In this document: one piece after another, positions 48,258 to 51,153 of the stretch | Layout: every line of letters starts with the position of its first letter | How positions within the stretch are numbered: position 1 is the first letter of the stretch | NCBI GenBank assembly: GCA_037442505.1 | Contig: JBBIPZ010000013.1 | Location: forward strand, 1 to 64,000 | Length of the DNA stretch: 64,000 bases | Direction of reading: 5' to 3' | Source: JBBIPZ01 sp037442505 [NCBI: Deltaproteobacteria bacterium] | GTDB lineage: Bacteria > CALINM01 | The notes under the pieces: generated by a model | Database searches by the model: none | What the model was told of the DNA's origin: nothing | Seen by the model: the letters and a program-made list of their open reading frames with translations, nothing else | Position numbers and translations under genes: made by a program

Positions 48258-49373
48258 TTATCTCAACCAATTTTCTGGATTTAATGGTTTTTCTCCTTCT
48301 CTAATTTCAAAGTAAAGTGTTGGAAAATCAAAAAAGCTTGCTTCACTTCCGACAGTCCCAATAATTTCTCCCTGTTTAACTTCGTCGCTTTTGGATTTCG
48401 TAATTGATGAGAGGCGACCATAGATGGTGTAAAAATGTTTTCCATGACTTATAATACAGATGTTGCCTAAATTTTTAATCCAGCCAGTATATACAACTTT
48501 ACCATTATCCACAGCACGAACTTTTGCCCCTTCTCTTGCCTGTATCTCGATACCTTTTCGAGCAAATACAGCCCCTTTTGTTACACCTTCTTCTTTACCA
48601 AAATGACCAACAATAGTGCCTGCAACTGGATAAGGTAAAATACCTTTTGCTAACCCTTTTCCAGTATATTCAGGTACCTGCTCGACCTTTTTTAACACCT
48701 TTTCCAGTTTTCGGAGTGCAGCTTCGGCATTTTTTAAATTTTTTGTATGTATAGCCTTTTCTTTTTTTGTTGCGGTTAAGCGTTCTTTTTGTAGCTTCTC
48801 AAAAGCTTCCTGCTCTTTTTTCTTCTGAATAAACTCTTTTTCAACCGCGGATATCTCAGACTGTTTGTTTTTGATATGTTGCAGGTTTTGTGTTAACTCC
48901 TCCTGATTTTGTTTAAGTGTGTCAAAAAGTGTCCTGTCGTAGTTGAAAATATAACGCATATAATTTTCGAATATCAGTGGATACTTTAGCTCTAATGTAA
49001 AAGAATAGGTTGGTTTTATCAGATACGTTTTATGCCATAATATCAATCGTTTTTCTATTTCAACCCTTTTTTTTGCAATTTCTTCGTTAAGCCTCTTGTT
49101 TTCAGCGTAAAGTTTATTTAAATCTGCTTGAAGTTTAATTTTATTGTTTTCTATTTCTTTAATACGTTTTTTTAACATCACTATCTTTTCGTTAATCTGT
49201 GCAAGAGTTAGAGTGATGCTCTTTTCTGTTTTTGAAAGGTCTTCTATCGCTGCCTTTTCTTGTTCTATCTTTTTTTTTAACTCCAATAATTTATCTTCTT
49301 GCTGACATAAAGCATTGTTTTGAAAAAAGAAAATAACCCCGGCGTATACCATTAAGATTAATAGACGAATCAT
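48258..49373 (-). CDS. EnvC-like murein hydrolase activator (M23 fold)
   Basis: A 371-residue exported protein: signal or membrane segment (about 1-22), a long coiled-coil (about 25-220, Lys/Glu/Leu-rich) and a C-terminal LytM/M23 domain (about 245-371) with AVDNGKVVYTGWIKNLGNICIISHGK and FPTLYFEIREG. The usual zinc-binding His residues (HxGxD, HxH) are replaced (KGIEI, YGRLS, LYFEI), as in E. coli EnvC, so it should activate amidases rather than cut peptidoglycan itself. It overlaps ftsX by four bases and follows ftsE, completing an FtsEX-EnvC module for cell separation. Confidence 0.85.
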   Translation of the reverse strand: MIRLLILMVYAGVIFFFQNNALCQQEDKLLELKKKIEQEKAAIEDLSKTEKSITLTLAQINEKIVMLKKRIKEIENNKIKLQADLNKLYAENKRLNEEIAKKRVEIEKRLILWHKTYLIKPTYSFTLELKYPLIFENYMRYIFNYDRTLFDTLKQNQEELTQNLQHIKNKQSEISAVEKEFIQKKKEQEAFEKLQKERLTATKKEKAIHTKNLKNAEAALRKLEKVLKKVEQVPEYTGKGLAKGILPYPVAGTIVGHFGKEEGVTKGAVFARKGIEIQAREGAKVRAVDNGKVVYTGWIKNLGNICIISHGKHFYTIYGRLSSITKSKSDEVKQGEIIGTVGSEASFFDFPTLYFEIREGEKPLNPENWLR

Positions 49374-50233
49374 AACTCTTTGTTATCTAATGATAGTCCA
49401 CCAACTGCCCCAATGATGGCAAACACAACGATAAAACAGATATAAAAAGTTAGTGGCAAAGTAGTAACATTTATGTTTAAAGCCGAAAGTTCTTGCTTAA
49501 TAATTAGTGTGAAATAGTATGAGAGTAATGAAGATAAGCTTGAGCTGAAAAGAAGTTCAACAAATCCTTCAAAGATAAGTGGAAAGACGATAAAACTCCT
49601 GCGTGCACCCAAAAGCTGTAAAAGCGAGAAGGCATTTTGGTATTTCAGGAAAAAAATCTTGTTGGTTGTTCTTAGCGTCAATAAAATTAAAAAAATTACT
49701 GTGACAGTGACTAAAGTGAATATCAATGAAGTGTATTTTTTTATTTGTAAAATAGGGCTGATAAATTTTTCTGTAGAATCAAACCAGTCAAAAAGGTCAT
49801 ATTTTTTAAGTTTTTCTCGAATTTGTGCTAAATACTCTTTTTCGGTAAATTCTGGCTTTATGTTTATTTCGAGCGTGTAAGGAAGCGGATTGGTTTCGAG
49901 GGTATTAAGTATTGTTCCTTCTTTGCCAAGTGATTTTTTCAGAAGTTCAAGACCTTCATTTTGCGATATGGTTTTTATGTTTTTTACTTCAGGCCAGTTA
50001 TTAATAGCCTTTTTTGTTGATGTAATAACTTCTGATGATATGTTTTTTTTAAAAAATGCATAAAATACAACGCTTGATGAGGTTTTTTCTAAGTAGTTAT
50101 TAAAGTTAAAAAATAAAAATGTGAATGTAAAAAAAATAGTAAAAAGAAAACACTGTAATAGAATATTTCCTGCCCTTTGCTTAAATCTCCCTTTAAAAAC
50201 GTTGTCAAAAACCTTAAGACTTGTCCTAATCAT
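49370..50233 (-). CDS. ftsX: Cell division protein FtsX
   Basis: Integral membrane partner of FtsE. The 287-residue protein has a cytoplasmic N-terminus, a first helix (about 24-42), a periplasmic domain (about 45-165, typically binding EnvC) and three further helices (about 172-195, 220-240, 260-285), the FtsX topology. Sequence KNAFSLLQLLGARRSFIVFPLIFEG is characteristic. I prefer ATG at 50233 because GGTGGGAG lies upstream; a GTG at 50251 would extend it by six residues inside ftsE. It overlaps ftsE by eight bases and envC by four. Confidence 0.85.
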   Translation of the reverse strand: MIRTSLKVFDNVFKGRFKQRAGNILLQCFLFTIFFTFTFLFFNFNNYLEKTSSSVVFYAFFKKNISSEVITSTKKAINNWPEVKNIKTISQNEGLELLKKSLGKEGTILNTLETNPLPYTLEINIKPEFTEKEYLAQIREKLKKYDLFDWFDSTEKFISPILQIKKYTSLIFTLVTVTVIFLILLTLRTTNKIFFLKYQNAFSLLQLLGARRSFIVFPLIFEGFVELLFSSSLSSLLSYYFTLIIKQELSALNINVTTLPLTFYICFIVVFAIIGAVGGLSLDNKEL

Positions 50234-50885
50234 TTTTATAAAGTCTCCCACCTTTCAGTGAGTAATGTTTAATGCTGGAAGACTCTTGAGTAGCTGCCAC
50301 CCCAGTTGTCATTATTATCGTAACACCTTTTCTTTGTTCCTCTTCAAAGAGATTCATAGTACATTCGATTTCGTCCCTGTGCAGGTGTTTAAATGGTTCA
50401 TCGGCAAGGATTATCAAAGGTTCACTAACAACAGCACGTAATATATTTAACAACTGCTTTTCACCCGTTGATAAACATGACACAACAACATCGTGCTTAA
50501 GGAAATGATTTTCTTTCAGCAGTTTGTCGATCTTTTCTTCAATATTGATGTTTTTCTTGTTGTTGGATTTTATCAAAAAGGCTAACTTTAAATTTTCTTT
50601 AACCGTAAGATTTTCAAAAAACAATTGATCGTGAAAAACGTATCCTATCTGTTTTCTGATTTCAGAGATTTTTCTTTTGTCATCTGGCAAAACGTAATCG
50701 AAAACATGAAGTTTGCCATTAATGGGTAGAAGTCTTCCGTATATAAGGTTTAAAAAGGTGGTTTTGTATTCAGCAGTGGACGCTGAGATGCAGACAAATT
50801 CGCCTTTGTTAATGGTGATGTTAATGTCTTTAAGTCCTGAAGTGCGTGGGGGATGAGAAAATGAAACATTTTCAAACCTGACCAT
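50226..50885 (-). CDS. ftsE: FtsE-type ABC protein with degenerate ATPase motifs
   Basis: A 219-residue ABC ATPase-fold protein with the FtsE order and location (FtsX and EnvC follow). Its nucleotide motifs are altered: the P-loop position reads ISASTAEYKTTF (33-44), without any of the Walker A glycines; the Q-loop is FHDQ (84-87), not FQD; the signature is LSTGE (138-142) rather than LSGGQ; the switch His after Walker B is absent (TTGVA, 193-197 against ATHD). Walker B LIILADEP (157-164) is intact, as are neighbouring FtsE-like segments. The reading frame is unbroken, so it is not a simple pseudogene. It may bind or signal without normal ATP hydrolysis. Confidence 0.8.
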   Translation of the reverse strand: MVRFENVSFSHPPRTSGLKDINITINKGEFVCISASTAEYKTTFLNLIYGRLLPINGKLHVFDYVLPDDKRKISEIRKQIGYVFHDQLFFENLTVKENLKLAFLIKSNNKKNINIEEKIDKLLKENHFLKHDVVVSCLSTGEKQLLNILRAVVSEPLIILADEPFKHLHRDEIECTMNLFEEEQRKGVTIIMTTGVAATQESSSIKHYSLKGGRLYKND

Positions 50886-51153
50886 TAATAATTTCCCTTA
50901 TTTTTTGGTCATACATCCCTTTACTTAATTCTATTAACATTCTTTTATGTTGTTTTTCTATTAATTCTTTAACAAGCTCGTTAAGTTCTGGAGAGCTTTT
51001 TGCATCACCGTAATAAGTTTTTTTAGAAGCGATAATGGAGCCCTTCAGGTAAAGATGCGTTACAACCTGATACCCTTTTGTGCCTGTATCCTCTGTCTGG
51101 ATGTGAAAGACCATATCTCTATACTTAAAGTTATTATTTAATCCAGGTACCAT
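50872..51153 (-). CDS. Conserved-type 93-residue protein of unknown function, first in the fts operon
   Basis: A small protein I cannot name. It contains KYRDMVFHIQTEDTGTKGYQ and VTHLYLKGSIIASKKTYYGD, a pattern I associate with uncharacterised small proteins in several anaerobic Gram-negatives. No signal peptide or membrane segment is visible. It overlaps ftsE by 14 bases and is the first gene of the operon, directly behind a near-consensus promoter with an almost absent leader. A role in FtsEX regulation is only inferred from position. Confidence 0.6.
   Translation of the reverse strand: MVPGLNNNFKYRDMVFHIQTEDTGTKGYQVVTHLYLKGSIIASKKTYYGDAKSSPELNELVKELIEKQHKRMLIELSKGMYDQKIREIINGQV

What the first reader, a model, noticed from the sequence alone, without database searches (positions are those of the whole stretch)
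50226..50885. FtsE with degenerate Walker A, Q-loop, signature and switch-His
All glycines of the P-loop are lost (ISASTAEYKTTF), LSGGQ reads LSTGE, the Q-loop Gln is shifted and the switch His is absent, while Walker B, reading frame, ftsX and envC remain intact. FtsE normally hydrolyses ATP to drive EnvC-controlled amidases; this may be an ATPase-independent FtsEX, or another ABC protein supplies ATP.
Basis: partly seen in the sequence, partly recalled or inferred. Interest (0 to 1): 0.7.

Follow-up and report, generated by a model that had tools for sequence, protein, structure and literature searches.

The report
Division protein FtsE without ATP-binding loop
In a little-known group of bacteria the motor subunit of the cell-separation complex FtsEX-EnvC has lost the parts needed to grip and burn ATP, yet it is kept under selection beside its usual partners, so this complex may work there without its fuel.

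Summary
Walker Lys, Thr, Asp and Glu remain. It is not a sequencing error: the one orthologous locus found (L001, 47% identical, same gene order) has the same rebuilt motif, 17 of 20 residues identical despite 11 silent codon changes. Two other draft genomes of that small phylum lack RomY, FtsE, FtsX and EnvC. AlphaFold2 predicts an FtsE fold with the phosphate loop collapsed into helix, unlike a canonical control. Of 125 sampled genomes with FtsE beside FtsX, 107 keep all four motifs scored; GK[S/T] is lost in two, L001 and G230. All nine genomes of G230's class have weakened FtsE. Most likely this is a pseudo-ATPase FtsE, kept as clamp and docking subunit of an FtsEX-EnvC complex that no longer runs on ATP hydrolysis. 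No function was tested.

The parts
50226..50885 (-). ftsE, degenerate (219 aa): Walker A ASTAEYKTT, Q-loop FHDQ, signature LSTGEK, Walker B LADEP, D-loop FKHLH, no switch His
   Evidence: fold:
50757..50783 (-). codons of the rebuilt P-loop, residues 35-43 (ASTAEYKTT)
   Evidence: position computed from the ORF; silent-change count
49370..50251 (-). ftsX with extracellular domain, overlapping ftsE
   Evidence: PF18075 50.4 bits, PF02687 29.6 bits; TIGR00439 113.3 bits, under its cut-off of 255
48258..49373 (-). envC-like protein with M23/LytM domain whose zinc motifs are mostly lost (RKGIEI, YGRL), so probably an activator like EnvC, not an enzyme
   Evidence: PF01551 86.8 bits, EnvC model NF008644 70.1 bits, under its cut-off of 270; compared with three M23 proteins of G001-G003
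50872..51153 (-). RomY N-terminal-domain protein (93 aa), overlapping the start of ftsE by 14 bases
   Evidence: NF053858 100.9 bits, cut-off 50

Best explanation
This is a genuine FtsE that has become a pseudo-ATPase. It keeps the ABC nucleotide-binding-domain fold and its place in a RomY-ftsE-ftsX-envC gene set. It should not form a normal phosphate-binding loop or a catalytic composite site, so it very probably does not hydrolyse ATP and may not bind it in the usual way. Shown here: motif losses, conservation of the rebuilt motif between two genomes, intact partner genes, predicted fold and loop collapse. Inferred: FtsE serves as the cytoplasmic clamp that holds the FtsX dimer and docks it at the divisome, while EnvC is released by protein-protein contacts (the Z-ring, or possibly RomY encoded just upstream) or is constitutively permissive, with the AmiC-type amidase controlled by other means.
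For: Orthologue L001 with the same rebuilt motif and gene order. Block 35-54 identical at 17 of 20 residues, 11 of them through silently changed codons, against 44 of 133 outside the motif blocks, Fisher p = 1.3e-5. FtsE fold kept, best match 8hd0_A, FtsE of E. coli FtsEX-EnvC, Z 28.9, rmsd 1.7 over 215 residues. Helix 1 begins three residues before the Walker Lys in the model but at the Lys in a canonical control. Separate GK[S/T] loss in G230. E. coli K41A and E163Q FtsE still bind FtsX in two-hybrid (PMC7668044, passages). An FtsE D162N ATPase mutant rescues ftsEX phenotypes when it cannot block division and a second separation system is present (PMC7343993, abstract and passages).
Against: Lys41, Thr42, Asp162 and Glu163 are all retained, which a pure scaffold would not need. 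In E. coli K41A and E163Q fail to complement and mimic loss of FtsEX (PMC7668044; PMC12505981). Two of the three held genomes of the phylum lack the whole set, so it may be nearly dispensable. The conservation rests on two genomes, and the motif blocks as a group are conserved, not the P-loop alone. No activity was measured.
Confidence: 0.6

Rival explanations
1. A hydrolysis-dead ATP switch: FtsE still binds nucleotide through Lys41, Thr42, Asp162 and Glu163 in an altered pocket, and binding or exchange rather than hydrolysis toggles FtsX.
For: These four residues are retained in window and L001, and the rebuilt loop is under purifying selection. In other survey genomes the switch His, and in two the catalytic Glu too, is lost while the P-loop stays intact, which suggests that binding without efficient hydrolysis can suffice.
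Against: Gly-to-Tyr directly before the Walker Lys and loss of the other P-loop Gly residues; the model forms no loop. The signature is weakened (LSSSE in L001), and D-loop Asp, Q and His are lost in both.
Confidence: 0.22
2. A fading gene: FtsEX became dispensable in this phylum, the operon is on its way out and FtsE is losing function first.
For: Two of three held genomes lack RomY, FtsE, FtsX and EnvC. FtsE is only 47.4% identical where FtsX is 46.3%; canonical pairs with FtsX at 45-50% (n = 2) have FtsE at 58% or more, those at 40-45% (n = 7) average 54% with a lowest of 47.9%.
Against: Intact overlapping frames, codon-position differences typical of selected genes (0.40/0.28/0.66), a conserved altered P-loop, and FtsX and EnvC under similar constraint.
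Confidence: 0.12
3. Another ABC ATPase pairs with this FtsE or with FtsX and supplies ATP hydrolysis.
For: G001 encodes other ABC ATPases with canonical motifs.
Against: Five of the six best FtsE-like ATPases of G001 have a longer MacB/LolC-type permease on their contig, and G001 has one FtsX_ECD protein. No second FtsE-like gene lies beside the operon.
Confidence: 0.04
4. Sequencing or assembly error, or not an FtsE at all.
For: Score below the TIGR02673 cut-off; but nothing in G001 reached that cut-off either.
Against: Independent genome with the same motif; FtsE is the best family and fold; FtsX adjacent.
Confidence: 0.02

Closest known systems
Canonical FtsEX-EnvC (E. coli, PDB 8hd0; P. 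aeruginosa, PDB 8i6o)
   Same: Gene order ftsE-ftsX-envC, NBD fold, FtsX extracellular domain, EnvC-like protein with a LytM domain lacking most zinc residues, an Amidase_3 enzyme in the related genome G001
   Different: P-loop, Q, switch His and D-loop Asp lost; signature altered; RomY-type gene upstream and overlapping
Laboratory FtsE ATPase mutants (K41A, D162N, E163Q)
   Same: K41A and E163Q keep FtsE-FtsX contact; D162N supports cell separation in one setting
   Different: Here the loss is natural and conserved in two genomes; in E. coli K41A and E163Q behave as nulls
Degenerate FtsE of the G230 class and partial cases (G012, G042)
   Same: FtsX-adjacent FtsE with catalytic motifs lost; G230 also lost GK[S/T]
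   Different: In the G230 class the Glu is Asp in 7 of 9 and GK[S/T] is kept in 8 of 9; in the window lineage Glu is kept and the P-loop is rebuilt
ABC proteins with one degenerate site (such as TAP, CFTR; recalled, no call)
   Same: Loss of catalytic motifs in an NBD
   Different: Those keep one working site in a heterodimer; a homodimer of this FtsE would have none

Membership tests
FtsE (TIGR02673) | Best match among curated ABC ATPase families | tested here: met
   TIGR02673 first of 153 families, 9.3e-39
FtsE (TIGR02673) | Score over the curated equivalog cut-off | tested here: not met
   133.3 against 264.85 bits
FtsE (TIGR02673) | FtsE fold | tested here: met
   AF2 pLDDT 89.7; 8hd0_A Z 28.9; other ABC ATPases follow closely (Z 27), so the fold alone does not single out FtsE
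FtsE (TIGR02673) | Gene next to an FtsX with extracellular domain | tested here: met
Functional ABC ATPase | Walker A GxxGxGK[ST] | tested here: not met
   ASTAEYKTT; L001 GSTSEYKTT
Functional ABC ATPase | Walker B Asp and catalytic Glu | tested here: met
   LADEP
Functional ABC ATPase | Q-loop Gln, switch His, D-loop Asp | tested here: not met
Functional ABC ATPase | Signature LSGGQ/E | tested here: inconclusive
   LSTGE keeps Ser and second Gly; L001 LSSSE keeps only Ser; 96 of 125 survey FtsEs have SGG
Functional ABC ATPase | ATP binding and hydrolysis | not testable with these tools
   needs biochemistry
FtsEX-EnvC-amidase system | EnvC-like activator encoded with ftsX | tested here: met
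   M23 domain after a long N-terminal region, zinc motifs mostly lost; coiled coil judged by eye
FtsEX-EnvC-amidase system | Amidase_3 enzyme in the genome | tested here: inconclusive
   one copy in the relative G001; the window's own genome is not held
FtsEX-EnvC-amidase system | Amidase activation controlled by FtsE ATP state | not testable with these tools
   needs reconstitution

The most novel reading that the evidence does not exclude
An FtsEX-EnvC complex that transmits a signal across the membrane with no ATP cycle at all, its FtsE being turned into a protein-sensing adaptor (the RomY-type protein encoded upstream being a candidate input). FtsE would have lost its catalytic machinery repeatedly in evolution, stepwise: switch His and Glu first, P-loop last.
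Probability: 0.3. Interest if true: 0.8.

Novelty: new variant of a known kind. Interest (0 to 1): 0.6.

Why it matters
FtsEX is a leading example of an ABC complex that sends a mechanical signal instead of moving a substrate, and ATP binding and hydrolysis are taken to be its engine. A natural FtsE that keeps FtsX and EnvC but not the phosphate loop separates the holding and recruiting role from the ATP role, which is hard to do with mutants. The G230 class, where decay is graded between relatives, offers a natural series. In the held library, searches for FtsE and FtsX with degenerate and Walker A, with pseudoenzyme, with 'lacks ATPase', and for FtsE with degenerate, nucleotide-binding, inactive and EnvC returned 5, 0, 0 and 2 papers. 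By their titles and abstract starts, and the passages seen of one of them, none announces a natural FtsE without a P-loop. The others were not read, and most subscription journals are absent from the library.

Tried and rejected
A second canonical ftsE elsewhere: the window's genome is not held. In G001 (completeness not stated) 39 hits to the FtsE model were listed; none is over the cut-off and only one FtsX_ECD protein exists.

One ancient origin of all degenerate FtsEs: a quick FtsE tree joined window, L001, L141 and the G230 class (support 0.95); a quick FtsX tree did not. On a 50-row FtsX tree the AU test rejected neither of two groupings tried (p 0.49 for eight rows with L141; 0.78 for seven rows without it, where the held tree even scored better). 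Long branches are present, so single or multiple origin of the early decay is unresolved. Loss of GK[S/T] itself is taken as separate in G230, because the eight other genomes of its class keep it.

RomY as exclusive partner: RomY-type genes also lie upstream of canonical ftsE, and all 13 genomes tested (G001-G003 and ten with RomY beside ftsE) have Roadblock/MglB-like proteins, so RomY may act in polarity instead.

Naming the phylum: not resolved. L001's record is titled Proteobacteria bacterium SKW176, but only three genomes of its phylum are held. AspRS of the window is 72-74% identical to those three; the listed matches in the other genomes of the 52 searched reach at most 57%. A plasmid search found nothing.

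Survey limits: of 386 genomes (groups not told), 219 had FtsX_ECD; the table of places was cut. FtsE beside FtsX was read in 125 genomes: 123 of the 219, plus two (L137/G047, L143/G017) without an FtsX_ECD match. Of the 130 FtsX places held as loci (30, 100), 21 had no FtsE within reach and are not in the 125. Not fetched: six listed places, three at contig edges, one (G022) where ftsE is not beside ftsX, and the unlisted weaker matches except four covered by earlier loci. L215 is masked at the switch. L299 scores as lacking GxxGxGK only through one Gly-to-Ser change. The 107 'canonical' rows were chosen by four motifs, so their uniformity there is by construction; the D-loop and A-loop were not used for choosing. 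The FtsE/FtsX identity comparison rests on few pairs: a 42-54% band that I chose gives n = 6, FtsE 58.3% or more; the 40-45% band (n = 7) reaches down to 47.9%.

Full report
What is there. The minus-strand ORF 50226-50885 encodes 219 aa. TIGR02673 (FtsE) is its best NCBIfam match, 133.3 bits against a cut-off of 264.85, and Pfam gives ABC_tran. It lies between a 93-aa RomY N-terminal-domain protein (50872-51153, 14-base overlap) and ftsX (49370-50251), followed by an EnvC-like M23 protein (48258-49373), all on the minus strand and overlapping. The EnvC-like LytM domain reads RKGIEI and YGRL where three other M23 proteins, one each of G001, G002 and G003, read HEGIDI and YAHL, so it is probably an activator rather than an enzyme, as reviewed for E. 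coli EnvC (PMC11627006, passages).

Motifs. Walker A is ASTAEYKTT, the Q-loop GYVFHDQ, the signature LSTGEK, Walker B LADEP, the D-loop FKHLH, and the switch has no His. Lys41, Thr42, Asp162 and Glu163 remain.

Relatives. A pattern scan of the genome collection (one genome for each of 84,980 species) with the window FtsE gave 104 confirmed matches, of which the best 80 were kept. Only L001 is close (E 1e-62, 48%); the next by E-value is 2e-26, 33%. L001 has the same order galT-pyk-dksA-RomY-ftsE-ftsX-envC-hsp20 and FtsE motifs GSTSEYKTT, FHPLS, LSSSEK, LADEP, FKYLH, no His. Its genome, G001, belongs to a phylum of which three genomes are held. AspRS identity of the window is 73, 72 and 74% to G001, G002 and G003, and at most 57% in the listed matches of the other genomes (52 searched), so the window belongs with them. 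G002 and G003 have no match to the FtsX profile, to FtsX_ECD or to RomY, and only partial M23-domain hits to the EnvC profile. In G003 the 1,255 bases that the contig holds upstream of dksA, where RomY and the start of ftsE would lie, hold other ORFs. The four genes are thus present together in two genomes and not found in two; G001-G003 are of unstated completeness.

Selection. Between window and L001, FtsE residues 35-54 match at 17 of 20, 11 of them through silently changed codons; outside five motif blocks 44 of 133 match (Fisher p = 1.3e-5). Differences by codon position for ftsE are 0.40, 0.28 and 0.66. The altered loop is therefore maintained. Yet FtsE (47.4%) is no more conserved than FtsX (46.3%). 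In canonical pairs FtsE averages 54% where FtsX is 40-45% (n = 7, lowest 47.9%) and 62% where FtsX is 45-50% (n = 2). With so few pairs this only suggests that the constraint has relaxed or changed, not vanished.

Fold. AlphaFold2 (35-row alignment) gives pLDDT 89.7. The best PDB match is 8hd0_A, FtsE of FtsEX-EnvC, which shares its sequence with the E. coli entry 8w6j: Z 28.9, rmsd 1.7 over 215 residues. In the model the loop between strand and helix is residues 36-37 and the helix starts at 38, three residues before Lys41. In the canonical FtsE of L002, which lies beside an ftsX and was modelled with the same 35 rows, the loop is 33-39 and the helix starts at Lys40. The phosphate cradle is predicted to be missing. 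Coordinates were not examined further.

How unusual. Among 386 genomes, 219 have an FtsX extracellular domain. FtsE beside FtsX was read in 125 genomes (limits under Tried and rejected). 107 keep GxxGxGK[ST], Q, Glu and His. GK[ST] is lost in two, L001 and L296 (G230: SENVLAATA, FSD, LTDGE, ADDP, no His; 243-aa frame intact, ftsX beside it). The switch His is lost in 15 of 124 (one masked), Glu in three (L141, L159, L296), Q in five (L001, L260, L283, L296, L304). In the class of G230, all nine held genomes have an FtsE that lacks the switch His and the second P-loop Gly; Glu is replaced in seven of nine, Q in eight of nine, and GK[ST] is lost only in G230. L296 FtsE is 45-52% identical to seven classmates whose FtsX is 56-63% identical to its own, while those seven among themselves have FtsE about as conserved as FtsX. 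So decay of FtsE catalysis recurs, and loss of GK[ST] is rare and, as the classmates of G230 keep it, probably arose at least twice.

Mechanism. In E. coli, ATP binding moves FtsX and EnvC and hydrolysis resets them; K41A and E163Q block amidase activation (PMC12505981, passages). The same variants still bind FtsX but fail to complement (PMC7668044, passages). A D162N mutant blocks division, yet under conditions where it cannot do so it rescues ftsEX phenotypes if the second separation system is present (PMC7343993, abstract and passages). I infer that in this lineage FtsE is kept as the clamp and docking part. Whether EnvC is then switched by protein contacts or left permissive is unknown. 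G001 has one Amidase_3 protein, as have G002 and G003, in which no FtsX was found, so the amidase is probably run without FtsEX in those two.

RomY. A RomY_Nterm-like match lies upstream of ftsE on the same strand in L001 and in 11 other survey loci (12 of 125; 122 have at least 300 bases upstream). 10 of those 11 were checked and are RomY_Nterm; all 11 have canonical FtsE by the four motifs. In the main text of the RomY paper (PMC9481161; word search and two passages) FtsE and FtsX do not occur. This makes RomY a candidate cytoplasmic partner of FtsEX, no more.

Verdict. A real, conserved, unusual variant of FtsE; very probably no ATP hydrolysis; function untested.

Noticed in passing
window 50872-51153; L266, L234, L135, L286, L278, L240, L236, L138, L275, L273, L228: RomY N-terminal-domain genes sit just upstream of ftsE in 12 of 125 survey genomes (L001 included), the other 11 beside canonical ftsE; the main text of the RomY paper searched does not mention FtsE or FtsX. 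L228 is a partial match that was not checked further.
   Followed up: partly
L340-L347, L296: A whole class (9 of 9 held genomes) with weakened FtsE: mostly GESRTGKST-type P-loop and FPD Q-loop, Glu to Asp in 7 of 9, no switch His; a natural decay series.
   Followed up: partly
L141 (G012), L159 (G042): FtsX-adjacent FtsE with intact P-loop but the catalytic Glu replaced (ADDP, ADQP) and no switch His.
   Followed up: no
L258, L265, L272, L290, L292, L252, L262, L269, L259, L260, L283: FtsE with P-loop and Glu intact but switch His replaced by Asn, Gln, Lys or Thr, in 11 survey genomes; L260 and L283 also lack the Q-loop Gln.
   Followed up: no
L193:1-1255 (G003): In G003 the bases upstream of dksA, where RomY and ftsE would lie, hold other ORFs (by eye, a pilin-like one at 90-542).
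   Followed up: partly
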